A stretch of DNA of 64,000 nucleotides, from the NCBI RefSeq assembly GCF_900111165.1, contig NZ_FOGH01000001.1, positions 62,001 to 126,000 of the forward strand. Direction: 5' to 3'. The position numbers and the translations under genes are program-made. Below, piece by piece: positions 6,013 through 27,349 of this stretch. How positions within the stretch are numbered: position 1 is the stretch's first letter; every line of letters starts with the position of its first letter. This DNA is from Nitrosomonas sp. Nm51 (GTDB taxonomy: Bacteria; Pseudomonadota; Gammaproteobacteria; Burkholderiales; Nitrosomonadaceae). The notes beneath the pieces are model-generated. The model was not told the DNA's origin. It ran no database searches and saw nothing but the letters and a program-made list of their open reading frames with translations.

Positions 6013-6465
6013 TTTTTTCTGGCGCGATTGTTGATAAGCAGAATATTTGAATAGCATGTTGAACGCGGGTTCCCAATAGAAATGTTTTGGCTTGAGTTTT
6101 AACAAGTTAGCAGCTATTAACATAGTTAATAACGATTATTGCAAAAATCCTATATCGTAAAAATGCACGTTGATTACTTGTATTTGAGAAATTTTATTGT
6201 GTGGTTCCGTAAGCGGTTCGTTCAGTCTTATTTTTTGGCAGGCTGGGTTCTACGATGGCTAAAAACGACATCTGGTGGTACTCATCTATTTGCCGCAATC
6301 ACGCTGGTTGCGGATCTGCAGTGTGCTAAATACACGCTACACGCGGCGCGCGCAGTCAAAATAGCAGGAAAAAACTGTTGCCAGTTTACGCCGCTTGTTA
6401 AAAATGGGTTTTTATAGAAATATTTTTGTGCCTTGACTATTTTGTTAGAAAAAGGAGTGCAACAT
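6013..6465. other. Gene-free stretch between transposase relic and BON-domain gene
   Basis: No convincing gene. A perfect 6-bp inverted repeat, CCGCAA at 6293-6298 and TTGCGG at 6308-6313, forms a small hairpin without a T tract. The promoter of the BON-domain gene should lie in the last 150 bases. The left part may include the outer end of the transposase relic, but I could not identify a terminal repeat. Confidence 0.4.
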
Positions 6466-12655: not shown

Positions 12656-14167
12656 ATGAATAAACATTATCAAAATCTGGTTCAGAAGTTAGAAGAAATT
12701 TCGCATTTAAATGGTGTAATGAATACACTTGGGTGGGATCAAGAAGTAATGATGCCAAGCGGAGCGGCACCAGCACGCGCCAGACAGGTTGCGGCACTTG
12801 CTGGCGTGATTCATGAACGTATGACGCATCCGGCCTTGGGCGAGTGCCTTGACGCATTAGAACAACACAACCATCATGTGAGCTCGGTTGAGCAATGCAA
12901 TATCCAGGAAGCAAAGCGGCAGTACGTTTTAATGACCAGAGTTCCGAAACGGCTGACTCAAGCGCTTGCAGAGCTTAGCTCCAGGGGACACGAAATCTGG
13001 GTGCAAGCGCGTCAGGAAAATAGATTTAATGATTTTGCGCCAGTAATTCAAGAGTTTCTGATGCTGAAGAAAGAATGGGCTGAGTGTGCTTTTCCTGAGC
13101 TATCTCTCTATGATGCCAATCTTGATTTGTTTGAACGCGGTACAACGGTGGCGCAGATTTCCACAGTTTTTGATCAGTTGAAAGCTTCTCTGGTACCGTT
13201 GATTGATGCAATCAGACACAATGGGTATCAGCCGGATACCAGTTTCTTAAAAGGCCGCTTTGGCATAAATCAACAGGTAAAATTGACACAGAAAATCAGT
13301 AAAGATATCGGCTTTGATTTTACAAAAGGGCGCATCGATGTTTCAGTTCATCCGTTTTGCGGTGGTGGTCATCCCACTGATGTCCGCATTACCACACGCT
13401 ATGCAGAGCATGATTTTATTGAATCACTGTATGCCGTCATTCATGAGACCGGACACGCGTTGTATGAACAGGGACGCATGCCGGGGCTCGAGGATCTGCC
13501 GGTTTCTGAGTCGCTAACGATGGGTATTCATGAATCGCAATCGCTGTTCTGGGAGCGTATGATTGGTCAGAGCAAAGCATTCTGCACACATTATTTCAAA
13601 CTGTTTTGTGATACCTTTCCGGACAATTTGAAAAATGTAACGGTCGATTCGTTTTATCAGGCTGTCAATATGTGCCAGCCTGCATTGATCAGGGTGGAAG
13701 CAGATGAACTGACCTACCCGTTGCATGTCATTTTACGCTATGAGATTGAAAAGGATTTATTCGAGGGCAATATTGCAGTCGATGATTTGCCGGAAGTATG
13801 GAATGAAAAAATGATTGCGTATCTGGGTATCCGGCCACCAAGCGATACGCTGGGTGTGCTTCAGGATTCGCATTGGAGTGGCGGTGCATTCGGTTATTTT
13901 CCGTCTTACACGCTGGGTGCAATTTATGCTTGTCAGTTTTATGACGCCATGCAGCAGGCTTTGCCGGACACAGAGAAAAATATTGAGACAGGAAATTTTG
14001 CACCGATAAAAAAATGGTTAAACGAAAATGTCCACAGGCAAGGCAGGCTTTATACACCTCAGGAACTTGTGCTACGAATAGCTGGCGAGCCCTTAAATCC
14101 GCAGCACTTTCTCAATTATCTCAAAGCCAAATATAGTGCGATTTACTGTTTAAATGTAAGCGCATAA
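12656..14167 (+). CDS. Carboxypeptidase M32 (Taq-type metallocarboxypeptidase)
   Basis: A cytoplasmic zinc metallocarboxypeptidase that removes C-terminal residues broadly. Start at 12656 (MNKHYQNL) fits the family length of about 500 (503 here); the frame extends 28 codons upstream from a GTG without a ribosome-binding site. The HETGH zinc motif is at residues 263-267, and a downstream GIHESQS supplies the third ligand. DVRITTRY, MGIHESQSLFWE and SGGAFGYFPSYTLGA are conserved M32 blocks. It stands alone between two non-coding stretches. Confidence 0.93.
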   Translation: MNKHYQNLVQKLEEISHLNGVMNTLGWDQEVMMPSGAAPARARQVAALAGVIHERMTHPALGECLDALEQHNHHVSSVEQCNIQEAKRQYVLMTRVPKRLTQALAELSSRGHEIWVQARQENRFNDFAPVIQEFLMLKKEWAECAFPELSLYDANLDLFERGTTVAQISTVFDQLKASLVPLIDAIRHNGYQPDTSFLKGRFGINQQVKLTQKISKDIGFDFTKGRIDVSVHPFCGGGHPTDVRITTRYAEHDFIESLYAVIHETGHALYEQGRMPGLEDLPVSESLTMGIHESQSLFWERMIGQSKAFCTHYFKLFCDTFPDNLKNVTVDSFYQAVNMCQPALIRVEADELTYPLHVILRYEIEKDLFEGNIAVDDLPEVWNEKMIAYLGIRPPSDTLGVLQDSHWSGGAFGYFPSYTLGAIYACQFYDAMQQALPDTEKNIETGNFAPIKKWLNENVHRQGRLYTPQELVLRIAGEPLNPQHFLNYLKAKYSAIYCLNVSA

Positions 14168-14394
14168 ATGTTCTTGCCTTTTGTATATAGACACTGAATT
14201 TCATTACCCTGCTGCGTGAGTTAGCGTTAGAAATTAGCGAAAGTCTCCTTTCTTTTGAAGTGAGGATTTAGACGATGGGAAGCGGTGAGGCTGCAAGAAC
14301 TGATGTGATAGTTGTATACTCGGTCCAGCCTTCTCCTTCGAGCGGAACGGTCAGCCGAGCGACCAATTAATCTGGCTTACAGTCGTAGCCTGAA
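14168..14394. other. Gene-free stretch, possibly the end of a lost insertion sequence
   Basis: No gene with a ribosome-binding site. A short frame from 14274 (MGSGEAARTDVIVVYS...) runs 33 codons to a TAA just before a strong GC hairpin. The arrangement of an open tail followed by that hairpin resembles the right end of IS200/IS605-type elements. I cannot recognise the protein tail, so this is only a suggestion. Confidence 0.3.
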
Positions 14395-14416
14395 CCCACC
14401 GGCTTCAGCCGGTGGG
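14395..14416. repeat. Perfect GC-rich hairpin, IS605-end-like
   Basis: CCCACCGGC (14395-14403) and GCCGGTGGG (14408-14416) form a 9-bp perfect stem with a TTCA loop. There is no T tract on either side, so it is not a standard terminator. Hairpins of this form end many IS200/IS605 elements. Confidence 0.5.
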
Positions 14417-14431
14417 GTATTCACTTTTGTT

Positions 14432-14506
14432 TTATACAAAGAGTGTTTCCAGTACCAGCAACATAAGCATAACAAGGGTTATCGCATAATAAGTTCCGGG
14501 TTTCAT
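14432..14506 (-). CDS. Small hydrophobic membrane peptide, 24 residues
   Basis: On the minus strand AGGAGG is followed after 8 bases by ATG and a 24-codon ORF: MKPGTYYAITLV, then MLMLLVLETLFV, then TAA. Residues 6-24 form one uninterrupted hydrophobic helix with a single Glu20. The ribosome-binding site is among the best in the window. The size, single helix and strong translation signal are those of bacterial small membrane proteins such as accessory subunits of transporters or oxidases. I do not recognise the family. AT-rich heptamer repeats lie directly upstream. Confidence 0.5.
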   Translation of the reverse strand: MKPGTYYAITLVMLMLLVLETLFV

Positions 14507-14518
14507 TGATGATGCCTC

Positions 14519-14560
14519 CTATAAAAAATAAAAAATAAAAAATAAAAAATAAAAAATAAA
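14519..14560. repeat. AT-rich heptamer tandem repeat
   Basis: About five to six copies of the unit AAAAAAT follow one another. They sit immediately upstream of the ribosome-binding site of the 24-residue peptide gene (minus strand), so copy-number change could alter its promoter spacing. Confidence 0.85.
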
Positions 14561-14605
14561 TTAACCAACGTTGTTATTTATTCTGATGCGTATTCTAACA
14601 GAAAG

Positions 14606-14660
14606 TTCACAAAAAAATCACAAAAAAATCACAAAAAAATAACAAAAAAATCACAAATAA
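14606..14660. repeat. A-rich decamer tandem repeat (TCACAAAAAAA)
   Basis: Four to five consecutive units of about 10 bases, a run of seven A residues preceded by TCAC (one unit TAAC). A-tracts phased at about 10 bp would give intrinsically bent DNA. They lie about 100 bases upstream of the minus-strand 24-residue peptide gene. Confidence 0.8.
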
Positions 14661-15271
14661 TTGTGATATAAAAAATATTATTTATATTCATATACTTAAT
14701 TACCTTAAATATTAGATCGAGTAAGTCGGAGGAATTTCATATCCAGTTTTTTGTAAAGCAGCTCGTTCGTGAACTTCTCTTCAATGGCTTCTATCGGTCA
14801 TTCCTATTAGTTCATAACCCAGATTTTTTTGCAAAAGCTGCCTAAAATGGCTTGAAATCATTTCTTGTAAGGTGACTCTGAAGGTATTGTTCAGATTAGA
14901 GGCAGCTTCTTACCCCGGTAACGCACAAGCTTATCCAGGAAAAATTTGAAAGTACTTGACAGGCAAAAAACATAAATTGCCATGATATAAGCTGAGCAGA
15001 TAAGCTAAGGTAGTGCATGAAGTGCTGGCGTAAATAAACACAGGTAAGGCAGGAAAATGATGGTTACAATTTTCTTTAAAAAACATCACAATTTTTTTAC
15101 AAACGGTATGGTAAATTACGGCCAACTAAGGATATGGATATTTGTTATGTCGTAAATCTTTTAAGAGCTTAAAGTTGAAATGTTAAGCATGTTTTAATTG
15201 ATATTTAAAACTCAACATCCGCACTCGTAGTGGTTTCCTTAATTTTCCTCTTTGATTGGCTAAGATTTACA

Positions 15272-15302
15272 CGTCTAATAAAATGAACTGTTCTATTAGA
15301 CG
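15272..15302. promoter_or_regulatory. Inverted repeat far upstream of sbtA
   Basis: CGTCTAATA (15272-15280) and TATTAGACG (15294-15302) form a perfect 9-bp inverted repeat with a 13-base spacer. It may be an operator or a weak terminator; a T-rich stretch follows some bases later. Confidence 0.4.
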
Positions 15303-15367
15303 AAGTTGATGATTTTTATATTGCGTGAAATTTAAATAATAACTATATGATTTTAGATCTTATTTAT

Positions 15368-15386
15368 CATAAATTGATCATTTATG
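15368..15386. promoter_or_regulatory. LysR-type-like inverted repeat upstream of sbtA
   Basis: CATAAAT, spacer TGATC, ATTTATG is a perfect 7-bp inverted repeat, and TCA-N8-TCA can be read across its left part. CbbR and CcmR regulators of carbon fixation bind TNA-N7/8-TNA sites, so this is a candidate for low-CO2 control of sbtA. No LysR gene lies in the window; the link is inference. Confidence 0.35.
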
Positions 15387-15684
15387 TGAAATCAGTGAAA
15401 AATCCTTACTTTCTCGCTTCTCCTTGCTATAAATCGGAAATAAAATTGTTACAGGTCCTGTTGAGTCAGGATGAATAACGGGTGCTGTTTCAATGCCTAT
15501 GAAATAAAACTAGTGACATATTAAGAGCATTAAAAACGTTCGATCTTTAGAAGATCAGTAAAGCTTATTATGCTCGAAAATTCAAAATAGATTTGAAAAT
15601 AAAAAGTTAGTATTAGAGTTATATTAAGAGTGGCTTTGTTTTTTTTGAGTAGTAAATAATTAAATACAAAAGGGGTAATAGTCT

Positions 15685-16677
15685 ATGTCGATTTCTGATG
15701 TTTTAGTACCTGTAGCGCTCTTTTTCGCGCTGGGCATGTTTGCAACCTTGATAAAATCCGATTTAAAACTTCCACCTGACATGCATAAAATGATTGTCGT
15801 GTATCTTTTGTCAGGAATTGGTCTGCATGGGGGTATGGAATTGGCTCACGCAGGAATAGGAGCAGCCCTTCCTGCTGTATTGGCGGCATTGGTATTGGGT
15901 TTTGGTCTTCCTATAGTGGCATACGTGATTATGCGTATGAAAGTTGATCCGATGAATTCGGCCGCGATTGCTGCGCATTATGGTTCTGTCAGTGCAGGTA
16001 CATACATGACAGCAGTTGCTTTTTTAACCGGTATCGGCGTAACTTTCGAGGCCTATCCTGTTGTTATGCTTGCAATTATGGAATCTCCTGCGATTATTGT
16101 CGGCTTGATACTGGCTGGCTATTCACGCGCAGTGGTTAGAAAACGTGAAGGCGGCTCCACTGACGACAAACAAAAAGGCGTCTTCAAACATTTACTTATA
16201 GATTCTTTTACCAATGGCAGTATTTTGATATTGTTCGGCACCATGTTTATTGGCGCCATTGTTAGTGAAGCAAACTACGATAAAATCGAACCGTTCTTCG
16301 GTACTCTGTTGATGGGCGCTTTGTGTTTGTTTTTATTGGACATGGGGCTTGAAGCAGGAAAAAGAATGGCTGAATTCAAAGATGTTGGTATTTTCTTGGT
16401 AATTTTTGGTATTCTGATGCCTCTCATCGGTGCGGCGACAGGGCTTGTTATCGGTCATTACTGGCTTCAATACTCTATTGGGGGCGTCACGCTGGTAACA
16501 GTATTGGCAGCCAGTGCCTCGTATATTGCTGTTCCTCCAGCTATGCGTATGGCTGTTCCCGAAGCGAACCCGTCCTTCTATTTAACTTTGTCACTCGGCG
16601 TTACTTTCCCGTTTAATGTGTTGGTAGGCATACCTCTGTATTATTGGGCGGCACAGTATCTCGCCGGTGCTGTATAA
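15685..16677 (+). CDS. sbtA: Sodium-dependent bicarbonate transporter SbtA
   Basis: A 330-residue membrane protein of the SbtA (DUF897) family with about ten helices, which imports bicarbonate with sodium. The start MSISDVLVPVALFFALGMFATLIKSDL, the stretch NSAAIAAHYGSVSAGTYMTA and ASASYIAVPPAMRMAVPEAN are family blocks. An extramembrane loop rich in Lys, Asp and Glu near residues 150-165 separates the two halves. AGGGG precedes the ATG. A PII-like sbtB gene follows 185 bases later, the same partnership as in cyanobacteria. In an autotrophic host it would raise cytoplasmic bicarbonate. Confidence 0.93.
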   Translation: MSISDVLVPVALFFALGMFATLIKSDLKLPPDMHKMIVVYLLSGIGLHGGMELAHAGIGAALPAVLAALVLGFGLPIVAYVIMRMKVDPMNSAAIAAHYGSVSAGTYMTAVAFLTGIGVTFEAYPVVMLAIMESPAIIVGLILAGYSRAVVRKREGGSTDDKQKGVFKHLLIDSFTNGSILILFGTMFIGAIVSEANYDKIEPFFGTLLMGALCLFLLDMGLEAGKRMAEFKDVGIFLVIFGILMPLIGAATGLVIGHYWLQYSIGGVTLVTVLAASASYIAVPPAMRMAVPEANPSFYLTLSLGVTFPFNVLVGIPLYYWAAQYLAGAV

Positions 16678-16862
16678 AATAATGAAACCCCGTTCTTTTC
16701 TAGTGTAAAGCTTGTTTAAGATAGCATATGATTAGCAACGGGCTTTCTTTGTATTTCAAATTATTAAATTATTGAAGATGTTCCGATATTTGGCGTGTCG
16801 TTGTTTAATCTTTTTCTTGTATCTTGGGAACTATTACCATTAATTACTTAGGGGGTAAAATT

Positions 16863-17192
16863 ATGACTTTGCAGCACGATGCTTTAGTACCATTGAAACG
16901 AGTAGAAATTGTTTTTGATGAAGAGGGCATGGGAGAGTTGGAAAATATACTAAAAACAATAGGTGCGCGTGGATATACATATATAAAACATGCTGGGGGA
17001 TATGGTTCGCGCGGAGAGCGCAGTCCCGATACCTTTGGGCTTAGAGAAGAAAATGTAGTTATTATTCTTGCCTGTACAGTTGCACAAACTGAAAAGCTGG
17101 TTACAATGCTTTCTCCTAAAATGGAGGAACTTGGCGGTATGTGTCTGATTTCAGATTGTTACTGGGTAAAAGGAGCTGCTGAGTCGTATTAA
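16863..17192 (+). CDS. sbtB: PII-like regulator of SbtA (SbtB-like)
   Basis: A 109-residue PII-superfamily trimeric protein that binds adenine nucleotides and gates SbtA. Start at 16863 because AGGGGG at 16848-16853 precedes it; the frame extends 13 codons upstream without support. The ferredoxin-like pattern KRVEIVFDEEGMGELENILKT, a T-loop-like segment GGYGSRGERSPDTFGL and VVIILACTVAQTEKLV fit the family. Canonical PII uridylylation tyrosine context is absent, as usual in SbtB. Two cysteines close to the end (GGMCLISDCYWV) might be redox-sensitive. Confidence 0.85.
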   Translation: MTLQHDALVPLKRVEIVFDEEGMGELENILKTIGARGYTYIKHAGGYGSRGERSPDTFGLREENVVIILACTVAQTEKLVTMLSPKMEELGGMCLISDCYWVKGAAESY

Positions 17193-17613
17193 ATCTCCGC
17201 TGCTAGATTGTGCCGTCTATCTACCGAAGCCTACTGATTATTGTTTGAAAATAACAGGCATTCGATTGTTATCAGCACTTCGCTGCCTTGCGGCGAAGTG
17301 CTGTCGCTGTTCTTCTGTTATTCCAGGAAAGGAAAAGTTTCTGAAGGCGAAGGCTTAAGTCAAAATCGTTTGCGATTCTAACCCATTGTTCTGTTACTTT
17401 AAAATTTCATCAGGCTTGGGATTTAAAGCAGTCATTATTTATATAATGAAATAATTATCGTATCGTTAGATAAATTAAATGCAGAAAATACACGAGAAAT
17501 CTTAACGCAAACTTAAAAAGCATTTATTATAAAATATGTTTTTATGCAACATGCTTAAGCGCATTCACAGTTTTTTATAACCCACTCAATCTGGATATGT
17601 TTATGAGGTTTGT
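17193..17613. other. Gene-free stretch between sbtB and the DAB operon
   Basis: No gene seen. It holds the sbtB-end hairpin at 17274-17302 and, in its last 200 AT-rich bases, presumably the promoter of the dab operon. GAGG 6 bases before the ATG at 17614 is the dabB ribosome-binding site. Confidence 0.5.
17274..17302 (+). terminator. Strong hairpin after sbtB
   Basis: AGCACTTCGC (17274-17283) pairs perfectly with GCGAAGTGCT (17293-17302) across a 9-base loop. No T tract follows directly, so it may be a transcript stabiliser, a Rho-dependent end or a binding site rather than a classic terminator. Confidence 0.5.
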
Positions 17614-19314
17614 ATGTCTATCGTTGTTTTAGTTCCCTTACTTCCATTAATAGGTGCGCTTATTGTAGTTGCAGGGGGCAGTGACTCCTTGCATAAACGC
17701 GCCAAACTTGCAGTCTATTTCCTCGGCGCGGCATTCATTGGCTCTGCTTTGACGCTTTGGCATGTGGCAACGGAGGGACCGATCACTATTCGTTTTTATG
17801 ATCCGGAATCCCTTGCTTCCCTGGTGTTTCCAATGGGTTTTTATATTGACCGGTTGAGTGCCGTCATGATGACGCTGATTTCCTGCGTTGGCATGATCGT
17901 TTATACCTACTCTGTCGGTAATATGTTCCAGGATTATAACGCCAGAAGATATCTATCACTGATGGCGTTTACGGTTTTCGTATTGCTTTGCATGGTTTCC
18001 AGTGCGAACATTATGATGCTATTCATATTCTGGCAGTTATTGAGTTATCTGCTTTATATCCTGGCGCATAACCATTCTCATGGGCCAACGCTTGCGGGTG
18101 CATTTAGAACGTACACGTTGCTAAGGGTAGGGGACGTCGCGTTTCTAACGGGTATTGTGCTGGCCTATCAGCTGTATGGCACACTCGAATTTGGCACGCT
18201 TTTTGAACGAGCAGCTGAAACGTCCGTTTTGCTTGCACCGCTTCCGGGTATTGAGATTAGCGGTGCGACAGCTGTTACACTATTCCTCTTGATCGGCGGA
18301 TTGTGTAAGTCCGCTAATTTTCCTTTCCATATCTGGCTGCCTAGTTCCCTTTTTGCACCGACGCCTATGCATGCTTTGCTTCATGCGGGGATTATCAATG
18401 CGGGTGGATTTTTGATCAATCGTCTGGCGCCATTGTTTGGTATGAGTCCAACGGTGCTGCATCTTGCTTTTGCGATAGGTTTGATAACCGTTATTGTCGG
18501 CGGTCTCATGATGCTCAGGCAAAACGATATCAAGAGAAAGCTGGGCTATTCGACGATTGGCCAAATGGGCTACATGATTATGGAGTGTGGACTGGGCGCT
18601 TTTGCATTAGCCGTGTTCCATCTGATCGCGCATGGTTTCTTCAAAGGTTCGGTCTTTCTGTATTGCGGTAATGTGATTCATGATGCGCGTAAACATCCGG
18701 GCATGCCGCATGTGGGCCATTCCGATAAGCCTAGAGAATTTTCCTTTCTGACATGGTTTACAGGGTTATTCACGACTTTGTTGATTCCGCTGGTTATTCT
18801 TCTCGCTATACATGATGTGCTTGATATGCCGTTACTTGAGTCGCAGGGATTGATGATCTTCCTGTTCTTTATTTGGATAACTTCTACGCAGGCGATTTTG
18901 TCGCTTACACGCATTCAAGGCGTGGCATCATGGAAAGTGTCGGCCAGTATGATATCTGTCTGGTTCTTCATCATATTTATTTATTTGTTTCTTGCTGAGA
19001 CTTTCACGGCGTTTCTGTATCCGGATCCGGCGGAAGTCGAATTTTATCTGCAGGCTGCAGCGCTTCCTGACTGGCTTTTTAGTACCATTGTGGTTGCCGT
19101 CTCTTTGGTAATTATTACAACCTGGTCGTATATGTATATTAGCGCAAAAGGCGGTTCCATCCGTGTGCCTGGCTGGATAAAATCGTTTAAGGTGCGTTTA
19201 TACACGTTATCTATGAATCGGTTCTATATTGAAAAAATGTATGAAGGGTTAGGACGGGTATTTTCGCGCGTTCTAAATCGAATCGTTGGGCATGATAAAG
19301 GATGGTCGAAATGA
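17614..19314 (+). CDS. dabB: DabB, proton-conducting membrane subunit of the DAB inorganic-carbon pump
   Basis: A 566-residue relative of complex I subunit NuoL/MrpA with about 14 helices. The proton-antiporter core is visible: SAVMMTLISCVGMIVYTYSVG, NIMMLFIFWQLLSYLLYILAH, RVGDVAFLTGIVLAY, LCKSANFPFHIWLPSSLFAPTPMHALLHAG split over the expected helices, and IKRKLGYSTIGQMGYM. DabB conducts the ions that energise DabA. The identification rests on the DabA homologue two genes downstream rather than on complex I genes, none of which are nearby. It ends in an ATGA overlap with the next gene. Confidence 0.93.
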   Translation: MSIVVLVPLLPLIGALIVVAGGSDSLHKRAKLAVYFLGAAFIGSALTLWHVATEGPITIRFYDPESLASLVFPMGFYIDRLSAVMMTLISCVGMIVYTYSVGNMFQDYNARRYLSLMAFTVFVLLCMVSSANIMMLFIFWQLLSYLLYILAHNHSHGPTLAGAFRTYTLLRVGDVAFLTGIVLAYQLYGTLEFGTLFERAAETSVLLAPLPGIEISGATAVTLFLLIGGLCKSANFPFHIWLPSSLFAPTPMHALLHAGIINAGGFLINRLAPLFGMSPTVLHLAFAIGLITVIVGGLMMLRQNDIKRKLGYSTIGQMGYMIMECGLGAFALAVFHLIAHGFFKGSVFLYCGNVIHDARKHPGMPHVGHSDKPREFSFLTWFTGLFTTLLIPLVILLAIHDVLDMPLLESQGLMIFLFFIWITSTQAILSLTRIQGVASWKVSASMISVWFFIIFIYLFLAETFTAFLYPDPAEVEFYLQAAALPDWLFSTIVVAVSLVIITTWSYMYISAKGGSIRVPGWIKSFKVRLYTLSMNRFYIEKMYEGLGRVFSRVLNRIVGHDKGWSK

Positions 19315-20564
19315 CATTTGAAGCAAATTCTTTAATTTTGACAATGGTGCCGTTGTTGGGCGGATTACTGGGTTTTGCGGTCTGGTCCCAGCCGAATAAG
19401 CTGAAGATGTTACTGACTCTCGTCACGCTGCTCAGTCTGGCGAGCGTGATCGTATTGTCAGGACAGGTCACAACATCAGCGGGTGGATCGTTATTGCTTT
19501 ATCTCCTGCCGCTGGCGGCTTGCGTATCGTTACTCGTGCAGTTCAACAACCATGACGACCCACTCAGCTCGCTGATGACCGTCGTGCTTCTTGGGCTGGG
19601 GTTAGGTGCTTTGACAAGCGAAGGCGTCACGAGCCAGATATTCCTGGCTGTAATACTGGGCCTGGTAGCATTTCTGCTGTTTAAGTACCGCAATCCGTTG
19701 TGGTCGTCATCCTGGACGGGTATTGGCGTTTCCGGTTTTGCTGCCGTATGTGCCGGCTTTTCTGCCGGTGCTGATGCTTCAGCTGCTTTGATTGTTTCAT
19801 TACTGGTTAGCGCGGTTCTGTTGCCGCTTCTTCCTTTGCAAGCGGGTTACGTAATGGCCGTTACGCGGTTGCCGGGTAGTCTGCCGGCATTTATGATATT
19901 TTTGTTACCTGTTCTCGGTTTGAATAATCTGGCTGGTCTGATAGTGGAAGTGCCGGAGGATATGGCGTATTCAATATCAATATTGGCCCTGGTCAGTATC
20001 GTTTTCGCAACACTCAAGGCAATGCTCCAATCCCGAGTGCCCTTGGTTCTGGCTTATAGCAGTTCCGCTTTCTTTGCAATTCTTTGGTGGTTCCTGGCAT
20101 CATCGCAAACGGTGACGCCTCAGAATGTCATCTATCTTGTTGCGGTAGCTCTGATGGCAACCGGTCTTATGCTTGCCTGGCAGGTCATCTGCAGCAAATA
20201 TGGCGATGATGTGGATATGAGAGCCGTTCATGGTCTTGTCTGGTCAATGCCGCAGTTTGCCGTTCTGTTGACGCTGGTGGCGCTGGCTGCAATGGGCATG
20301 CCGCCATTTGGCGTTTTTGCCGGCTTTGTGGGTATGCTTCTGACCACTGCATATGCAACGTATATTCCGTTGATATTTATCCTTGCTGCATGGCTAGCGG
20401 CCTCCTGGTACATTATGAGCATGGTGCAGAAAATGCTCTTTGGTCAAAAACAGCTGGAGATTCGCCAGATTAGATTGCATCAGTCGGAATTTGCATCTCT
20501 TCTGATAATAGTATTGATTAGCGTTGCGTTGGGGGTGCTGCCAAGCGATATTGCTGGCATCTAA
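19311..20564 (+). CDS. Second complex-I-like membrane subunit of the DAB operon
   Basis: A 417-residue polytopic membrane protein (about 12 helices) encoded between DabB and DabA. Start at 19311 because it forms an ATGA overlap with dabB; an ATG 9 bases upstream is also possible. The segment VWSMPQFAVLLTLVALAAMG, then MPPFGVFAGFVGM, resembles the C-terminal helices of NuoN/NuoM-type proton channels, but the N-terminal half has diverged and I see no conserved charged helix residues with certainty. The best known DAB systems have only dabB and dabA, so this extra subunit is notable. It probably lies in the membrane with DabB. Confidence 0.8.
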   Translation: MTFEANSLILTMVPLLGGLLGFAVWSQPNKLKMLLTLVTLLSLASVIVLSGQVTTSAGGSLLLYLLPLAACVSLLVQFNNHDDPLSSLMTVVLLGLGLGALTSEGVTSQIFLAVILGLVAFLLFKYRNPLWSSSWTGIGVSGFAAVCAGFSAGADASAALIVSLLVSAVLLPLLPLQAGYVMAVTRLPGSLPAFMIFLLPVLGLNNLAGLIVEVPEDMAYSISILALVSIVFATLKAMLQSRVPLVLAYSSSAFFAILWWFLASSQTVTPQNVIYLVAVALMATGLMLAWQVICSKYGDDVDMRAVHGLVWSMPQFAVLLTLVALAAMGMPPFGVFAGFVGMLLTTAYATYIPLIFILAAWLAASWYIMSMVQKMLFGQKQLEIRQIRLHQSEFASLLIIVLISVALGVLPSDIAGI

Positions 20565-20606
20565 TCTAATGTCCCCAATGATTGTAACTTTAATGGAATT
20601 TGTATC

Positions 20607-23600
20607 ATGAAACTAAAAGAATTGACTACCAGTAATACCTTAGCGGGGGTGGGATTAGTAAATGAGAAGGAAGACGAGATTGCGGTGAGAGCCGATGTCG
20701 ATGGTCTTCGTACAAAACTGCGCGACGACGTTAAATCGGCTAATGAAGTGATCGCCGGATTCTGGCCAATGCGTACGTTTGTGCATCATAATCCGCTGCA
20801 TTCCCTTGAATACCTTAAATTTGACGAAGCGGCGCACCGCGGTAAGCAGTATCTGAACGGTAAGGGCTACCTCCCGAATTATATGTACCGTAAGTATTTT
20901 AAATTAGGGAGAATTCTGCCTCGGCATGTTGATTCAGTACTTGAAAAACAAGTACAAAATGAGCAGATACTGATCGGTTCGCGTCAAATAGGCCATAAGG
21001 ACGTGTTGCGCACATGCCTGACTGAACGCATTTCTTCTGCTGAGGAAGATTTATCCGGTGTCAATACACCAAGCGACTCGGATTATGAACTCGTCAAGGC
21101 ACTGTCCGATCGACTCGCATCCGCTATTCCAGCACAGAATGCCGCCGAGAAACTACGGGATGTGGCTACACAAGATGAAGCTGCGCTGGTGCGGACAATG
21201 ACCATCGCACAGTGGTGTGACAAGGTACTGGATACGCAGATTGTCGATGTGATGGTGAGCGATCTGGTCGGCCGATGTGAGCCGTTTCTTGATGAAGGGT
21301 ATACCACCTGGGAAATGACCGGTCGCGAAAAAGGTTTTTTTGTAAAATGGAAAAACACCTTGTCGGATGAATGGTCAACCTGCGGAATTGATAATCTTGG
21401 GAAAAAAATTGCCCAACTTCCCGATGACGCGGAATATGTCGTAATAGACTGCCTGCAAACACTCGGAATTCCGCAGAACGCATGGAAGGAATATTTAACG
21501 CTGCATATGAGTATCCTGCCCGGCTGGGTTGGCTATATCAAGTGGCGTGCCAAACAGGATAATTATGTATGGCAAAACGCATATCCCATCGATCTGGTTC
21601 AGTATCTTGCGGTTAGCCTTTGGTATGAGCGTGAATTAGTCAAAAAATACTGTGATCAGTTTCTTGGTATTGACGGGCGTTATCCGGAAATCGTTTCTTT
21701 CATGAAAAATTCCTCACGTGAATATTTTTTGCGTAGAGAGCGCAATGCAGGCCGCTTAGCGGCAGCTTACTCTGCGGAAGTCGATCGTCTGTCGCATCGC
21801 AAAGGTGCAAACTGGGATGATCTGTTCAATCATTACTGGGAGAACGGTAATCCTAAAGTCGTCAGGGCGGCGCAGAACAAGCTGTCTAGAAGCTTGTGCC
21901 TGCTGGCGTCAGCGCTGAAGATAGAGCCGTCCAGTTTGCTGGATTGTTCTCCGGCAGATCTGAAAAAGCTGAATGACTGGATAGCCGCATTTCCGGAATC
22001 GGATCATGGCCCCGTATGGCTCAGAGCTTTTGAGGCGGGCTATCAGGAGCAATTACTCGGCAGAATTATTGAATCAAAAGCGAAAAGCGACGAATCGGCG
22101 CGTAACAAGGTGCAAGACAAAGTGCGCCCACATACACAATCGGTTTATTGTATCGATGTGCGCTCTGAACCCTTCAGACGTCATCTGGAAGCTTTGGGAC
22201 CAAATGAGACGTACGGGTTTGCAGGTTTCTTTGGCGTGTTGATTACGCACAGTTTTTGGGAACATGAACATCAAACCGAACAATACCCGGTTATTGTCGG
22301 CCCTAAAACTGAAGTGCATGAGATACCGCGCAGCTATCTGGAAAATATGCTGCCGATGTATGAACATCGTACCAGCATGATTCATGCGAGTCATACACTG
22401 CTTCATGATTTGAAGCATAACGCGATTACGACTTACGTTATGGTTGAAGCGGTCGGCCTGTTTTACACTATACAGATGTTCGGCAAAACCATATTGCCAA
22501 GACTCTATCTGAATGCGAGTAACTGGCTCCAGAAGAAGCTTATTCCGGCTATCTCGACGACGATCACGGTTGACAAGCCGAGTGAAGCTGAAACCGAAGA
22601 AATGCTGAAGGTTAAGTATGAGGGTGTCATTTATAAAGTGCTGCAGAATGTTACTGGCCTAAGTAGATGGAAGGTGCCGAATAATCTGGTTAATGCCTTG
22701 TGGCAACATATCTTGAATTCCGAGATAGAATTGGATGGCGCATTGATCGAAATGGCCGATAAAGCCGGAATTTCAAAAGAGAGACTATCTGACGCAGTCA
22801 GCCGCTTACAGCTCCACTACGGTGTCGAACAAAAAGAAATTTCTTGTCAGAAAGAACATATTCTGCAAACCGGGTTTTCTTTAGAGGACCAGGTGCAGAC
22901 AGTCGGCAACGCATTGCGCATCATGGGCCTTACCACCAATTTTGCGCGATTGGTGCTGATTTGCGGACATGGCAGTGAATCGGATAATAATCCGTATGAG
23001 TCGGCGCTGGATTGCGGTGCCTGTGGCGGAAATGAAGGCAAACCAAATGCGCGCGTTTTTGTCATGATGGCGAATAATCCTCTGGTAAGAGAGCGATTGG
23101 CCAAAGGCGGTATTGAAATCCCGTCTGATACCTATTTCGTTGCCGGTCAGGTGAATACGACAACGGATGAGGTGGAGCTGTTCGATCTGGAAGATTTTCC
23201 TTTATCACATGGTCAGGATATCGCAAGATTGATTGAATACCTGGATGAAGCTGGGCGCAGAACGAGCCAGGAGCGCTGCAGTCGATTCGCGGATATTGAG
23301 AACGCTTTGACACATAGCGAGGCTAAATCGCATGTAATTCAGAGAAGCGCGGACTGGAGTCAGGTAAGGCCTGAGTGGGGGCTGTCCAGCAATACCGCTT
23401 TTGTGATCGGACGACGTGCACTGACTGATTCGCTGGATTTGCGCGGGCGTGTTTTCCTGCATTCGTATGATTATCGTTTTGATCCTGAATTCAATTTCCT
23501 TGAAGTCCTGATGACCGCGCCTCAGGTGGTCGCACAATGGATCAATATGGAACACTATTTTTCAACGACTGATTATGATGTGTATGGTAGCGGGAGTAAA

Positions 23601-23912
23601 ATTTATCATAATGTGACCGGAAATTTTGGTGTAATGGCAGGGCCCTGGAGCGATCTTCGTCTTGGATTATCATGGCAGACAGTAATGGATGGAGAGCTGC
23701 CATTCCATGAACCAATGCGCCTGGTTTCAATTGTTGAGGCGCCGCGTAACGAAATTGAAAAGTTAATTGCTAAACATGAACTATTGCAGCATTTTTATCA
23801 TAATGAGTGGGTGCATCTTGTAGTGCTAGAACCGGAAGAAGGGACTCTCTATCGTTACCTGCCTGCAGGCGAGTGGGTTAAATTCGATAAAAACGTTATC
23901 GATAAACAATGA
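20607..23912 (+). CDS. dabA: DabA, carbonic-anhydrase-like subunit of the DAB pump (DUF2309, long form)
   Basis: An 1101-residue cytoplasmic protein that with DabB converts CO2 to bicarbonate in one direction, driven by ion flux. The beta-carbonic-anhydrase-like site is present: Cys515 and Asp517 in YCIDVRSEPFRRHLE, then His788 and Cys803 in LICGHGSESDNNPYESALDC with the following GACGG. The His-to-Cys spacing of 15 equals that of the characterised Halothiobacillus DabA, while the Cys-to-His distance is about 100 residues longer, so this is a long-form DabA. The N-terminus has the family block FVHHNPLHSLE. A terminator hairpin follows closely. Confidence 0.94.
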   Translation: MKLKELTTSNTLAGVGLVNEKEDEIAVRADVDGLRTKLRDDVKSANEVIAGFWPMRTFVHHNPLHSLEYLKFDEAAHRGKQYLNGKGYLPNYMYRKYFKLGRILPRHVDSVLEKQVQNEQILIGSRQIGHKDVLRTCLTERISSAEEDLSGVNTPSDSDYELVKALSDRLASAIPAQNAAEKLRDVATQDEAALVRTMTIAQWCDKVLDTQIVDVMVSDLVGRCEPFLDEGYTTWEMTGREKGFFVKWKNTLSDEWSTCGIDNLGKKIAQLPDDAEYVVIDCLQTLGIPQNAWKEYLTLHMSILPGWVGYIKWRAKQDNYVWQNAYPIDLVQYLAVSLWYERELVKKYCDQFLGIDGRYPEIVSFMKNSSREYFLRRERNAGRLAAAYSAEVDRLSHRKGANWDDLFNHYWENGNPKVVRAAQNKLSRSLCLLASALKIEPSSLLDCSPADLKKLNDWIAAFPESDHGPVWLRAFEAGYQEQLLGRIIESKAKSDESARNKVQDKVRPHTQSVYCIDVRSEPFRRHLEALGPNETYGFAGFFGVLITHSFWEHEHQTEQYPVIVGPKTEVHEIPRSYLENMLPMYEHRTSMIHASHTLLHDLKHNAITTYVMVEAVGLFYTIQMFGKTILPRLYLNASNWLQKKLIPAISTTITVDKPSEAETEEMLKVKYEGVIYKVLQNVTGLSRWKVPNNLVNALWQHILNSEIELDGALIEMADKAGISKERLSDAVSRLQLHYGVEQKEISCQKEHILQTGFSLEDQVQTVGNALRIMGLTTNFARLVLICGHGSESDNNPYESALDCGACGGNEGKPNARVFVMMANNPLVRERLAKGGIEIPSDTYFVAGQVNTTTDEVELFDLEDFPLSHGQDIARLIEYLDEAGRRTSQERCSRFADIENALTHSEAKSHVIQRSADWSQVRPEWGLSSNTAFVIGRRALTDSLDLRGRVFLHSYDYRFDPEFNFLEVLMTAPQVVAQWINMEHYFSTTDYDVYGSGSKIYHNVTGNFGVMAGPWSDLRLGLSWQTVMDGELPFHEPMRLVSIVEAPRNEIEKLIAKHELLQHFYHNEWVHLVVLEPEEGTLYRYLPAGEWVKFDKNVIDKQ

Positions 23913-23935
23913 TGACTGAGATTTGTTAAAACTCG

Positions 23936-23975
23936 ACGAACTGTCACAGTTGCTGTGGTCAGTTCGTTTGTTTTT
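23936..23975 (+). terminator. Terminator of the DAB operon
   Basis: ACGAACTG then CACAG pairs with CTGTG then CAGTTCGT around a TTG loop (23936-23967), with a few mismatched bases in the stem. The T-rich tail TTTGTTTTT follows. It lies between the convergent dabA and CsoSCA genes. Confidence 0.85.
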
Positions 23976-24086
23976 AACACCGTTTAAGATTAACCGGCTA
24001 AGCCTTCTCTATTTCTGGCGATCATTTGTTCGAATCTCTGTGACGCTATTTGTTTTATAAAAACTACCTCGACAAAACCGGCCGTC

Positions 24087-25571
24087 TTAATGTCCGGCTT
24101 CTTTGACCTGATCTTCAACGAACGTGCAACGTTCAGTGCCAGCTATATCACTTATTGCAATTTGACAATAAAGCAAGCCTTTTTCATGGAGTTGTGAATA
24201 ACGTGCCTCTATTGCTGCTTTGACACGCCTGCAACGTCTTATTGTGCGATTACGCGCACCTGGCACATGCGAAGAGTAGTGATAATGCACTAGTATGGGA
24301 ATTGCCAAACCATGCTTGATATTAAGTTCAGTAAAAATCTTGATGCCCACATCTAAGTCGGCTGCACCTTCTTCAACTGTGTTCAGATGGGCGAAATAAT
24401 ATTTATTGCGCAAATATAATTCTTTCATGGATTCACCGGCGCAGATGAAACGCTCGTTATGACCAATCACCCGATAACGCCCGGCATGATATTGAATTAC
24501 AAATTCAATTTGCGATAGATTGGCTTCAACCAGGCCAAGCACCAGGTTTCGCATGCCTGTTGCCATCTTATCTTTTTTTTGATTGATCCCATTTTGCGAT
24601 TCTGCTTTGGACACAGATTCTGCAATATATGTCCGAGCAGCTTCTTGATCCATTCCTAGCGATTTTTTATATACATCGCCGCTATCAACATAACGGTCAG
24701 GAAGAATATTGCCGCTGGCATCTGGGAAGTGAACACGAATGGAATCGAGATCTGTATCAACGCCAATTAAAAGAATATCTGGTGCAGCTCCGCGGCCATA
24801 AGTATTATTTATGGCGGCGCGCAATTCATTTAGCCTTGCCAGCGCGGATTCGCATGCTTTCCTGGTGTCACTGCCATGTGCGGCACAACCTTGGTGGGTA
24901 GGATTCGAACTGCTGTAGTGATATACCGCTATTTTCAAGTAATTGTTATTTTCATGGCCGGGGAGGCCGCCAGATAACCGCTCGAGCTCACGATGCGCCC
25001 AATCAACAATGTTTTCTTCGATATTAAACATTGTGCCGGCATATGACTTGATATAAACAGATTCGCTAGGCCCGATTCGGAGTATGAAAGGTAACAATCC
25101 TTGCAGACGACCATCTGCACAGGAGCTGATATTTACCGTGTGGTATCCGCAGGAATGTATGAAGTCTGTATTTAATACATAACAGTCGCGCCAGGATGCC
25201 TGATCAAAACGTGCCTTAGCGACACATTCCTTAAAACTATGGAAAACACAGTATGAATACAGCGCACGCAAGTTTAGGCCAGCTACCCAGGAGTCTTCCA
25301 ATAAACTGACAGGCAACATATAGTGCAACTGATCCATTGCAATACGCTGTGCGTGAGTGACAAAATCTAGATCGTGTTGATAAATGGAAAGTGTTTTTAT
25401 AGTGTTTTTAATTGCTGAAAAGCGGCTGCGAACAAGCTCCTCATAAATATGTAAAAACTCATTTAAATCAGTATTGACAAGCGAGTGTTTACAAGCTTGC
25501 TCTGGTCCGTCAATGCTGACCGGGTCAACAAATTGTTCGGTTATAACAGGTGAATTTTCAGTCTTATCCAT
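24087..25571 (-). CDS. csoSCA: Carboxysome-type carbonic anhydrase CsoSCA (stand-alone)
   Basis: A 494-residue homologue of the beta-type carbonic anhydrase of alpha-carboxysomes (CsoS3). The zinc and catalytic residues line up with the Halothiobacillus enzyme: Cys151, Asp153 and Arg155 in SSCADGRLQG, His218 in AVYHYSSSNP and Cys229 in THQGCAAHGSD. The spacing is 67 and 11 residues, close to the 69 and 11 of the known structure. N-terminal, catalytic and degenerate C-terminal domains all seem present by length. No shell, rubisco or CsoS2 gene is nearby. It is convergent with the DAB operon. No ribosome-binding site is obvious before the ATG. Confidence 0.9.
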   Translation of the reverse strand: MDKTENSPVITEQFVDPVSIDGPEQACKHSLVNTDLNEFLHIYEELVRSRFSAIKNTIKTLSIYQHDLDFVTHAQRIAMDQLHYMLPVSLLEDSWVAGLNLRALYSYCVFHSFKECVAKARFDQASWRDCYVLNTDFIHSCGYHTVNISSCADGRLQGLLPFILRIGPSESVYIKSYAGTMFNIEENIVDWAHRELERLSGGLPGHENNNYLKIAVYHYSSSNPTHQGCAAHGSDTRKACESALARLNELRAAINNTYGRGAAPDILLIGVDTDLDSIRVHFPDASGNILPDRYVDSGDVYKKSLGMDQEAARTYIAESVSKAESQNGINQKKDKMATGMRNLVLGLVEANLSQIEFVIQYHAGRYRVIGHNERFICAGESMKELYLRNKYYFAHLNTVEEGAADLDVGIKIFTELNIKHGLAIPILVHYHYSSHVPGARNRTIRRCRRVKAAIEARYSQLHEKGLLYCQIAISDIAGTERCTFVEDQVKEAGH

Positions 25572-26380
25572 TTAGTCATTTGCCTTTGTGCGGTTATTAT
25601 TTGCGGTTGTGTATATGTATGTATGTTTATTTATTTAACTACCTTTTTTATGCACGTGTACCACCAGAAATAAACATGCAGCATTTTTGTCTTTACTGTC
25701 TGCTGGTCCGCTAATACGGTTCTTTAGTACTGGATACAGAAGATCGCTCCATTTCGCGCAGTGTAAAAAGTGTAAAAAGATTCTCATTTAGGGCATCTCG
25801 AGATTTCTTGGCCGTTAAGAGAATTGAGAAAATTTGTGGTAGACTACATTATGGCGGTTTTATAGATTAGAGCGGTCTAATATAACGTTCACAAAAAGCA
25901 AGCAAACCTCCATAAATAACTCCAAAAAATAAATTTTCTCATTTATCACTTGAAAAGATTCTAATCCAGCTGGCATAAAAATTTTGTGATAAAAATGTAA
26001 ATTATTTGTAAATTCTGAGAAAATTTATTGCTATCAATTGTATTGATACGTCTGGGTGCTTAGTCTAATCTACATGATGGCCCCGCACTCTGTCAGTGTC
26101 CTGTAACGGCACAAATACACAATGGCAGGATGCGGTATTGATCTTTCTGTCCATGGAAGAAGCGGCTTTTCAATTTGTCGTGAGCGGATTCATTGATCGC
26201 ATCAAAATCCAATAATAATATTTTTAGGTGCATTGTTGAACGGGGCAATGAATTACTCAACGATTACTTCGCGTATACGCCATACTGCCCGGCTGTCTGA
26301 ACGATTTGGCAGGAGTTGTTTCTCTTTTTTGCACTGTTTTAGCTAGCGCCCAAGCAACCGGGACCGCTTCTGCCGACAGC
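25572..26380. other. Gene-free AT-rich stretch between csoSCA and proline iminopeptidase
   Basis: About 800 bases without a supportable gene. It should hold the csoSCA promoter (minus strand) near 25600-25800. A short inverted repeat ATTAGA-GCGG-TCTAAT lies near 25867-25882 and a direct repeat AGTGTAAAA near 25769-25786. A 46-codon minus-strand frame at 26093-26233 has no ribosome-binding site. The right half looks like decayed coding DNA but I cannot name it. Confidence 0.4.
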
Positions 26381-27349
26381 TTATTTCGTTGCGAAAAGCC
26401 GTTTAAATTTCTCGGTTGCTTGAATTAGTGCGTGAAGTATACTGGGTTCCCATACCGAATGTCCGGCATCGTCAATAATCTTGTATTCTGCCTCGGGCCA
26501 TTTCTCATGTAAGTCATTTGCGCTGATAATCGGACATACAGCATCATAACGACCTTGAACGATGATTGCCGGAGTTTTGTGCAGCTTATGTACATTATTC
26601 AATAGCGAATTTTCCGGTAGAAAAATGTCGTGGCTGAAATAGTGCGTTTCCATGCGTGCCAGGCCCAGTGCCACCGTATCTTGCGCGAAATAATTTACCG
26701 TTTCCGGACTGGGTAGCAACGTCGAACATGATCCTTCGTAAATGCTCCAGCTGCGTGCAGCGGGCATATGAACAGCCGGATCAGGGTTTTTTATACGCTG
26801 ATAATAAGCAGAAAGAATATCGTTGCGCTCGGCTGTATCCAATTGAGCGACAAATGTTTGCCAGGCTTCCGGAAAAAAAATTTTCAGCCCATACAAAAAC
26901 CAGTCAATTTCTTGTTTTCGGCATAAAAAAATACCGCGCAAAATCAGCCCCAGGCAACGATCTGGATGGGTTTCGCCATAGGCAAGTGCTAGGGTGCTGC
27001 CCCAGGACCCTCCAAAAACCAGCCATTTTTCGATGCCGAGATGTTGCCTTAGTTGCTCGAGATCATTAATCAGCAGCGGTGTCGTGTTATTGCGCAATTC
27101 GCCTAAAGGCGTTGAACGTCCGGAACCGCGCTGATCGAGTATAACTATCCTGTAGTACGATGGATCGAAAAATCGGCGGTGAGACGGTGTCGATCCCGCT
27201 CCCGGTCCGCCGTGTAAGAAAACAACCGGTGTTCCTGCGGAATTTCCTGATTGTTCCCAGTAAATTGTATGAATCGAATCCACTGGCAACATCCCCTGTT
27301 GATAAGGTTCGATCTCAGGAAATAATTGAAATGTGCTGTTGGTTTGCAT
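26381..27349 (-). CDS. pip: Proline iminopeptidase
   Basis: A cytoplasmic alpha/beta-hydrolase peptidase that removes N-terminal proline (family S33). Start at 27349 (MQTNSTFQLFPEIEPY) gives 322 residues, the usual length; the longer frame is unsupported. The oxyanion segment VVFLHGGPGAGS, DQRGSGRS, the nucleophile Ser115 in GGSWGSTLALAYG, and the late Asp and His (QGRYDAVCP, DDAGHSVWEP) are present. It is divergently oriented to the 76-residue gene at 27491. Confidence 0.94.
   Translation of the reverse strand: MQTNSTFQLFPEIEPYQQGMLPVDSIHTIYWEQSGNSAGTPVVFLHGGPGAGSTPSHRRFFDPSYYRIVILDQRGSGRSTPLGELRNNTTPLLINDLEQLRQHLGIEKWLVFGGSWGSTLALAYGETHPDRCLGLILRGIFLCRKQEIDWFLYGLKIFFPEAWQTFVAQLDTAERNDILSAYYQRIKNPDPAVHMPAARSWSIYEGSCSTLLPSPETVNYFAQDTVALGLARMETHYFSHDIFLPENSLLNNVHKLHKTPAIIVQGRYDAVCPIISANDLHEKWPEAEYKIIDDAGHSVWEPSILHALIQATEKFKRLFATK

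What the first reader, a model, noticed from the sequence alone, without database searches (positions are those of the whole stretch)
15685..25571. Compact inorganic-carbon acquisition island without carboxysome genes
SbtA, SbtB, DabB, an extra membrane subunit, DabA and a CsoSCA-type carbonic anhydrase lie together in 10 kb. Two different CO2/bicarbonate capture routes (sodium-bicarbonate symport and vectorial CO2 hydration) and an interconverting enzyme are combined, yet no shell, CsoS2 or rubisco gene is next to them. This suggests a carbon-concentrating strategy that feeds a free cytoplasmic rubisco or a carboxysome encoded elsewhere.
Basis: partly seen in the sequence, partly recalled or inferred. 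Interest (0 to 1): 0.75.

Follow-up and report, generated by a model that had tools for sequence, protein, structure and literature searches.

The report
Carbon pumps beside a second CsoSCA
An ammonia-oxidizing bacterium carries its bicarbonate and CO2 pumps next to a spare, relocated copy of its carboxysome's carbonic anhydrase while its real carboxysome genes sit elsewhere, and many relatives that appear to lack carboxysomes pair a similar enzyme with a similar pump.

Summary
The genome (a Nitrosomonas; 99.9% complete, 131 contigs) has a complete cso operon on another contig, with its own csoSCA and the only rubisco large-subunit gene found. So "carboxysome encoded elsewhere" is right and "free cytoplasmic rubisco" is not supported. 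The island CsoSCA is a second copy, of the kind called CsoSCA2, already reported from N. nitrosa (PMC9164163). New here: it is a relocated cassette (decayed csoS2 tail, csoSCA, ending at the csoS4A start) with a partial second relic in the same genome. It keeps the listed catalytic residues and the NTD, lacks the 18-residue N-terminal extension of the carboxysomal copy, and is under purifying selection (omega 0.15). Its place beside dab is not shared by the other genomes. Also new, as far as I searched: in 27 of 33 resolvable genus-mates with a larger DAB operon, none with a full-length CsoSCA match, a shorter CsoSCA2 gene follows the last antiporter-like gene. CsoSCA-family enzymes thus recur beside DAB. 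The role of CsoSCA2 is inferred: cytosolic partner of the pumps (about 0.45).

The parts
15685..16677 (+). sbtA, sodium-dependent bicarbonate transporter family
   Evidence: Pfam Sbt_1 359 bits; the only Sbt_1 match in the genome
16863..17192 (+). sbtB, P-II-like regulator (start corrected from 16824)
   Evidence: Pfam P-II 36.7 bits; AGGGGG run before ATG 16863; 109 aa
17614..19314 (+). dabB, NuoL-like membrane subunit
   Evidence: Pfam Proton_antipo_M/N; 90% identical to the N. nitrosa copy
19302..20564 (+). third DAB subunit, NuoM/N-like, overlapping dabB by 13 nt
   Evidence: Proton_antipo_M 42 bits; full-length in 2 of 85 genus genomes including this one, weak partial match in a third; named relatives outside Nitrosomonas among the 120 best are Nitrospirota
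20607..23912 (+). dabA, catalytic subunit of the CO2-hydrating pump
   Evidence: Pfam DabA 837 bits; zinc and Asp-Arg residues kept
24087..25571 (-). csoSCA2, second copy of the carboxysome carbonic anhydrase gene, without the N-terminal extension, convergent with dabA
   Evidence: TIGR02701 610 bits; catalytic set and NTD kept; omega 0.153 over three orthologues
24056..24086 (-). 3' spacer of the cassette; homology to intact cso operons stops at or within a few bases of the csoS4A start
   Evidence: blastn borders against four intact operons, window 24056-24062
25635..25758 (-). decayed csoS2 3' end (about the last 35-40 codons, frameshifted)
   Evidence: best alignment score 80 vs shuffle mean 27.4, sd 3.7, z 14.4; z 5.7-12.1 against the three other csoS2 ends (coordinates)
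25774..26041 (-). non-coding region shared by csoSCA2 loci, possible promoter region
   Evidence: z 27 and 36 against the N. nitrosa and slu-bin5 loci, z 13 against a 60-nt stretch of G080; no similarity to cbbL upstream regions
25700..26334 (-). segment with a second relic copy at contig C63 of the same genome
   Evidence: 92.2% over 526 nt plus 95.9% over 49 nt; found

Best explanation
The island is the inorganic-carbon uptake half of an alpha-carboxysome CO2-concentrating mechanism whose carboxysome is encoded on another contig. SbtA (with SbtB) imports bicarbonate; the three-subunit DAB hydrates CO2 to bicarbonate at the membrane; bicarbonate enters the carboxysome, where the cso-operon CsoSCA frees CO2 for rubisco (inferred from the gene families). 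The CsoSCA in the island is a second copy from an old duplication (CsoSCA2), carried on a cassette made of the csoS2 tail, csoSCA and the spacer up to csoS4A, which probably reached its present site within this lineage. It is an intact enzyme by sequence, under purifying selection, and lacks the N-terminal extension of the carboxysomal copy. Most likely it works as a cytosolic carbonic anhydrase alongside the pumps when carboxysomes are few or CO2 is intermediate, letting bicarbonate made by DAB/Sbt and CO2 needed by rubisco interconvert. Shown: genes, operon elsewhere, cassette anatomy, selection, conserved residues (architecture about 0.9). Inferred: location, timing and role of CsoSCA2 (about 0.45).
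For: Complete cso operon and the only rubisco match on C73. csoS2 tail before csoSCA2 in all four loci found, best z 14-31; 3' border of the window copy at the csoS4A start; upstream region shared by the loci; second relic in the same genome. omega 0.153 (csoSCA2) vs 0.126 (carboxysomal), three genes each. N-terminal extension out of frame or interrupted in the window, N. nitrosa and G080 copies. In 27 of 33 resolvable genus-mates with a larger DAB operon a short CsoSCA2 follows it; the 16 proteins aligned (all) keep all seven catalytic residues. The genome's one Pro_CA and one Carb_anhydrase protein have Tat-like and Sec-like N-termini by eye. Passages of PMC9894237: DAB2 and a cytosolic CA, alone or together, improved rubisco-dependent E. 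coli growth at 0.5-1.5% CO2 without carboxysomes.
Against: A free cytosolic CA is expected to drain the bicarbonate pool of a working carboxysome system (recalled; PMC9894237 passages state CA activity is localized exclusively to the carboxysome). The slu-bin5 csoSCA2 keeps the N-terminal extension in frame and that genome (90% complete) has no DabA or Sbt_1 match, so csoSCA2 does not need DAB there. Only 1 of 3 genomes with intact csoSCA2 has it beside dab. PMC12646314 (abstract, passages) reports CsoSCA recruitment by shell proteins. No expression data. Gamma- and iota-class CAs were not searched.
Confidence: 0.45

Rival explanations
1. CsoSCA2 is a carboxysome component after all: it enters mixed hexamers with the cso-operon CsoSCA or binds shell hexamers directly, giving a second, separately regulated dose of lumen carbonic anhydrase.
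For: The NTD, which holds the hexamer hook, is kept (PF20687 89.5 bits; H66, next to the position that aligns with Pro87 of H. neapolitanus, is invariant in 12 aligned proteins), although PMC11086599 (section 10 read) describes the hook as exclusive to cso-operon sequences. slu-bin5 csoSCA2 keeps the N-terminal extension. PMC12646314 reports shell recruitment independent of CsoS2 (abstract and passages). The three genomes with intact csoSCA2 also have cso operons, the slu-bin5 one cut by a contig end; the broken copy (G080) is in a genome without another CsoSCA match.
Against: Three of four copies lost the N-terminal extension; PMC10614612 passages report that CsoSCA without the first 49 residues is not encapsulated in H. 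neapolitanus. The two copies in this genome are only 74% identical.
Confidence: 0.3
2. CsoSCA2 beside dab is a chance landing of a mobile cassette and has no link to the pumps; the enzyme is a bystander slowly decaying or doing general bicarbonate supply.
For: csoSCA2 loci have different neighbours: dab (window), two tRNAs and aroC (slu-bin5), a thioesterase/PP-binding gene (N. nitrosa), RND efflux genes (G080). It is convergent with dabA. The copy in G080 is cut after about residue 108.
Against: omega 0.153 and intact catalytic set argue against decay; CsoSCA-family genes recur beside DAB in other lineages.
Confidence: 0.25
3. The island is a carboxysome-free CO2-concentrating system feeding cytoplasmic rubisco.
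For: No shell or rubisco gene in the window; gene content resembles the DAB+CsoSCA2 operons of genus-mates without a full-length CsoSCA match.
Against: This genome has a complete cso operon that holds the only rubisco match.
Confidence: 0.05

Closest known systems
CsoSCA2, first variant (Nitrosomonas nitrosa, Nitrosomonas sp. 51, Nitrobacter; PMC9164163)
   Same: Second CsoSCA outside a cso locus in a genome with a typical cso locus; shortened N-terminus; catalytic residues kept
   Different: Section 6 of the paper (read) does not mention the dab neighbourhood, the csoS2 tail relic, the csoS4A border or relocation; it says the N-terminal 40 residues are missing, here 18 relative to the copy in the same genome; the NTD is retained
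H. neapolitanus DAB1, three-subunit (DabA1, small membrane protein hneap_0908, DabB1; PMC13144422 passages)
   Same: DabA plus DabB plus one further membrane protein
   Different: Here the third subunit is a 420 aa NuoM-like protein; relation to hneap_0908 not tested
DAB2 (DabA2-DabB2, PDB 9rd0)
   Same: Catalytic residues and spacing of DabA; NuoL-like DabB
   Different: Two subunits; DabA here 1101 aa vs an 870 aa chain
SbtA/SbtB bicarbonate uptake
   Same: Sbt_1 transporter followed by a P-II-like protein
   Different: Nothing notable tested
Non-cso CsoSCA cluster (PMC11086599 section 10) / CsoSCA2 second variant
   Same: The 349-397 aa enzymes (as called) after the larger DAB operon in genus-mates: no NTD, catalytic residues kept
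   Different: The paper notes neighbours often associated with NADH-related genes, hydrogenases or permeases; here they are antiporter-like genes of a DAB operon with dabA

Membership tests
Alpha-carboxysome (cso) locus | rubisco, csoS2, csoSCA, csoS4, csoS1 together | tested here: not met
   Only csoSCA and a csoS2 relic in the window; full set on C73
CsoSCA family | NTD, catalytic and C-terminal domains; C173, D175, R177, H242, C253, H397, E399 equivalents | tested here: met
CsoSCA2 first variant | outside a cso locus, clusters with cso CsoSCA, shortened N-terminus | tested here: met
Carboxysomal cargo | found inside carboxysomes / binds rubisco or shell | not testable with these tools
   no expression or binding data; N-terminal extension absent
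DAB complex | DabA with zinc and Asp-Arg residues next to a NuoL-like DabB | tested here: met
DAB complex | energy-coupled CO2 hydration | not testable with these tools
   needs an uptake assay
SbtAB | Sbt_1 transporter with adjacent P-II-like SbtB | tested here: met
DAB-linked CsoSCA2 operon of genus-mates | short CsoSCA2 on the same strand right after the antiporter-like genes | tested here: not met
   window csoSCA2 is convergent and of the long type

The most novel reading that the evidence does not exclude
CsoSCA-family carbonic anhydrases are repeatedly recruited as cytosolic partners of DAB pumps. In Nitrosomonas that appear to lack carboxysomes, a DAB operon with four antiporter-like subunits ends in a compact CsoSCA2, forming a pump-plus-anhydrase module that supports rubisco without a shell; in the window lineage a carboxysomal CsoSCA shed its N-terminal end and took up the same partnership.
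Probability: 0.35. Interest if true: 0.75.

Novelty: new variant of a known kind. Interest (0 to 1): 0.48.

Why it matters
Carbonic anhydrase outside the carboxysome is thought to undermine a CO2-concentrating mechanism, yet these genomes keep a conserved CsoSCA-family enzyme beside their pumps, in one lineage together with a carboxysome and in many without a detectable one. That makes the role of CsoSCA2, which PMC9164163 says has yet to be studied, directly testable, and bears on whether pump plus free anhydrase is a working intermediate in the evolution of carboxysome systems (the case tested and modelled in PMC9894237). For the window itself, the correct reading is a carboxysome bacterium whose parts are split over two loci.

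Tried and rejected
Rejected: csoSCA2 driven by a copied cbbL promoter (24 comparisons, z at most 2.3). Rejected: window and cso-operon copies as recent duplicates (74% identity; dS about 1.6). Rejected: reciprocal operon loss at a common site; hemF/aroC lie near the cso operon here and near csoSCA2 in slu-bin5, but on opposite sides. Not resolved: the tree of 19 proteins (10 of the 12 fetched, P0007 and P0009 left out, plus 9 genome copies) interleaves csoSCA2 and csoSCA; deeper nodes in the group have supports of 48 to 97, so it neither shows nor excludes gene conversion. Single origin of the cassette rests on the shared csoS2 tail and upstream sequence. Hydrophobic-segment counts are crude. 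Promoter and terminator scans of 14160-26400 were at background (23 found vs 25.7 expected; 15 vs 12.1). Rfam and tRNA scans of the window found nothing. The genome-contig scan with the window CsoSCA gave 3 loci, in two Nitrosomonas assemblies; plasmid records gave 2 matches at 55% and 42% identity. The gene name sulfotransferase, given by eye to a neighbour of the N. nitrosa csoSCA2, was not borne out by Pfam and is not used.

Limits and errors of mine: the window SbtB query was cut one base out of frame (16862), so hits or misses with it mean nothing; no conclusion uses it (the G003 SbtB query was in frame). Overlapping hits were thinned before printing; one search dropped pairs under 55% identity or 60% length. 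One search is a lower bound for short CsoSCA2: it missed G001, whose protein matches TIGR02701.
Full report
What is there. On the plus strand lie sbtA (15685-16677), sbtB (best start 16863), dabB (17614-19314), a NuoM-like gene overlapping dabB by 13 nt (19302-20564) and dabA (20607-23912); csoSCA is on the minus strand (24087-25571), convergent with dabA and 174 nt from it. The weakest matches are SbtB (P-II 36.7 bits, cut-off 25) and the NuoM-like gene (42 bits to part of Proton_antipo_M, cut-off 21.5). DabA has the zinc and Asp-Arg residues in the spacing of solved DabA2 (residue roles from passages of PMC13144422). The CsoSCA has all seven residues listed as active-site in Table 2 of PMC9164163 (section 4 read; checked).

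Where the carboxysome is. The genome (3.24 Mb, 131 contigs, 99.93% complete) has CsoS2_M, BMC and RuBisCO_large matches only on contig C73, and CsoSCA_cat matches on C73 and in the window. C73 carries cbbL, cbbS, csoS2, csoSCA, csoS4A, csoS4B, three csoS1, a ferritin-like gene, an acRAF-like (Pterin_4a) gene, a ParA-like gene, a 79 aa ORF, cbbQ, cbbO (VWA domain) and a csoS1D-like BMC gene. csoS4A, csoS4B, one csoS1 and csoSCA pass their NCBIfam cut-offs; csoS2 and the csoS1D-like protein match carboxysome models below cut-off. The names acRAF, cbbO and csoS1D are given from domain, size and gene order (recalled). The island lies at 77.7-87.6 kb of the 215.8 kb contig C82, so the cso operon is not a neighbour.

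The island CsoSCA is a second copy. Of 85 genus genomes searched with TIGR02701, 25 had a match at E 0.001 and 6 a match over the cut-off: G000, G014 and G063 with two such genes, G007, G008 and G010 with one. G080 has only a csoSCA2 fragment of about 108 residues running into an HlyD-type (RND adaptor) gene. PMC9164163 (section 6 read) already reports such second genes in N. nitrosa and Nitrosomonas sp. 51 as CsoSCA2, missing N-terminal residues and derived from CsoSCA.

Cassette anatomy. Immediately upstream of csoSCA2 in all four loci lies a csoS2 3' end: best alignment scores against four intact csoS2 ends were 80, 127, 148 and 87 (window, N. nitrosa, slu-bin5, G080), z 14.4, 29.3, 30.8 and 16.9 over 100 mononucleotide shuffles each; the weakest of the 16 pairs had z 4.7. 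Homology starts about 100-125 nt before the csoS2 stop in each. At the 3' end, homology of the window locus to four intact operons stops at window 24056-24062, at or within a few bases of the csoS4A start; the other csoSCA2 loci were not examined for this border. Farther upstream a non-coding stretch is shared by the window, N. nitrosa and slu-bin5 loci (z 27, 36, 83), and about 60 nt of it by G080 (z 10-13; the adjoining part of G080 was outside the slice compared); it does not resemble six cbbL upstream regions. A DNA search of 12 genus genomes with the slu-bin5 stretch found it at three csoSCA2 loci (not at G080), at one more place in the window's own genome, C63, and as a 37-nt piece elsewhere in slu-bin5. 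The C63 copy (92.2% to window 25700-26216, 95.9% to 26286-26334) includes part of the csoS2 relic, gave no CsoSCA hit, and adjoins the RND genes that also adjoin the G080 fragment. This suggests that the cassette moved or was copied within this lineage and that its position beside dab is young. In N. nitrosa the dab genes follow the intact cso operon, convergent with it, and csoSCA2 is on another contig.

Selection and N-terminus. A codon model gave omega 0.153 for three csoSCA2 genes and 0.126 for three carboxysomal genes from the same genomes; no test of difference was made. The N-terminal extension of the carboxysomal protein (18 residues in this genome) is frameshifted or interrupted before csoSCA2 of the window, N. 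nitrosa and G080, and open in slu-bin5. Database proteins P0005, P0006 and P0008 of the same group also start at the shorter position, but this is weak, since the database starts P0007, the N. nitrosa cso-operon protein, late as well. PMC10614612 passages report that in H. neapolitanus removal of the first 49 residues abolishes encapsulation and that no motif is conserved across proteobacteria, so loss of binding here is an inference. The NTD itself is retained, unlike the non-cso CsoSCA group described in PMC11086599 section 10 (read).

Other carbonic anhydrases. The genome has one Pro_CA gene with a Tat-like N-terminus, near urease and urea-transporter genes, and one Carb_anhydrase gene with a Sec-like N-terminus; the signals were judged by eye. 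CsoSCA2 may thus be the only soluble cytosolic carbonic anhydrase outside the carboxysome; gamma and iota classes were not searched. G007 and G008 have cso operons, no csoSCA2 and no Pro_CA match, so such an enzyme does not seem obligatory.

The wider pattern. DabA is in 42 of 85 genus genomes, Sbt_1 in 58. Comparing, in 17 of 18 genomes with only a weak CsoSCA match (G080 aside) that match lay about 5 kb from dabA on the same contig; the 18th, G064, has them on separate short contigs. I therefore read at least one dab locus of each of the 42 genomes; further DabA genes or pieces of G004, G069 and G077 were not fetched. Thirty-seven carry another operon type, an antiporter-like gene, dabA, then three more antiporter-like genes (incomplete at contig ends in G011, G048, G051, G058, G077). 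In 27 of these a CsoSCA-like gene follows the last of them on the same strand (cut by the contig end in G058; G062 has two); 6 lack it (G004, G013, G049, G052, G069, and G076 within the 1.0 kb left on its contig); 4 cannot be judged because contigs end (G011, G048, G051, G064) (recount 103). None of the 37 is among the 6 genomes with CsoSCA over the cut-off; csoS2 and BMC were not searched in them. The other five DabA genomes are G000 and N. nitrosa (three-subunit type), G007 and G008 (dab beside cso) and G005. Of five short proteins scanned, four pass the CsoSCA_cat cut-off and one is just below; the 16 proteins keep all seven catalytic residues and lack the NTD, at 22-25% identity to the CsoSCA of this genome. 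In G003, sbtA and sbtB lie about 2 kb upstream of the operon. PMC11086599 section 10 notes that non-cso genes are often associated with NADH-related genes, hydrogenases or permeases, and PMC9164163's conclusion says that likely DIC transporters are associated with atypical loci or lie elsewhere (passages). I saw no statement of a DAB operon ending in CsoSCA2 in the listings of searches or in what I read; these cover only the openly licensed library, and Desmarais et al. 2019 and Scott et al. 2020 were not available to me.

Origin of the pump. The NuoM-like subunit is full-length in 2 of 85 genus genomes, this one and N. nitrosa (83% identical), with one weak partial match. This suggests transfer between nitrifiers; no tree was made.

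Reading. The island is the uptake half of a carboxysome system plus a relocated CsoSCA2. I put about 0.45 on a cytosolic role with the pumps, 0.3 on a carboxysomal role through mixed hexamers or shell binding, 0.25 on a bystander. PMC9894237 passages give a rationale for the first: DAB2 and free CA, singly or together, helped rubisco-dependent E. coli at intermediate CO2, though their model warns of futile cycling when both are high.

Noticed in passing
L099 (G003:C137:24001-44000), 15263-16342, and 26 further genomes: A DAB operon with four antiporter-like genes is followed by a compact CsoSCA2 gene in 27 of 33 resolvable genus genomes; G062 has two copies in tandem.
   Followed up: partly
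window 17614-23912: DabA and the NuoM-like subunit have Nitrospirota as their nearest named relatives outside Nitrosomonas; possible transfer between nitrifiers.
   Followed up: partly
G000:C63:22860-24600 (L088) and G080:C170 (L048): RND efflux genes 97% identical between two genomes adjoin csoSCA2 remnants that are only about 80% alike; the RND segment may be mobile.
   Followed up: no
L089 (G000:C65), 25389-26225 of the contig: A beta-carbonic anhydrase with a Tat-like N-terminus follows urease and urea-transporter genes (Pfam).
   Followed up: partly
L011 (G000 C73) 4554-6092 and upstream of cbbL: The cso-operon CsoSCA of this genome is the most divergent of the group (dS above 1 to the other copies where computed), and no LysR-type gene lies directly upstream of cbbL, unlike N. 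nitrosa, slu-bin5 and G010.
   Followed up: partly
window 61036-62571: A serine recombinase (Resolvase plus zinc ribbon domains) lies near the window end.
   Followed up: no
window 14587-14674: Short A-rich direct repeats (11-nt spacing) about 1 kb upstream of sbtA.
   Followed up: no
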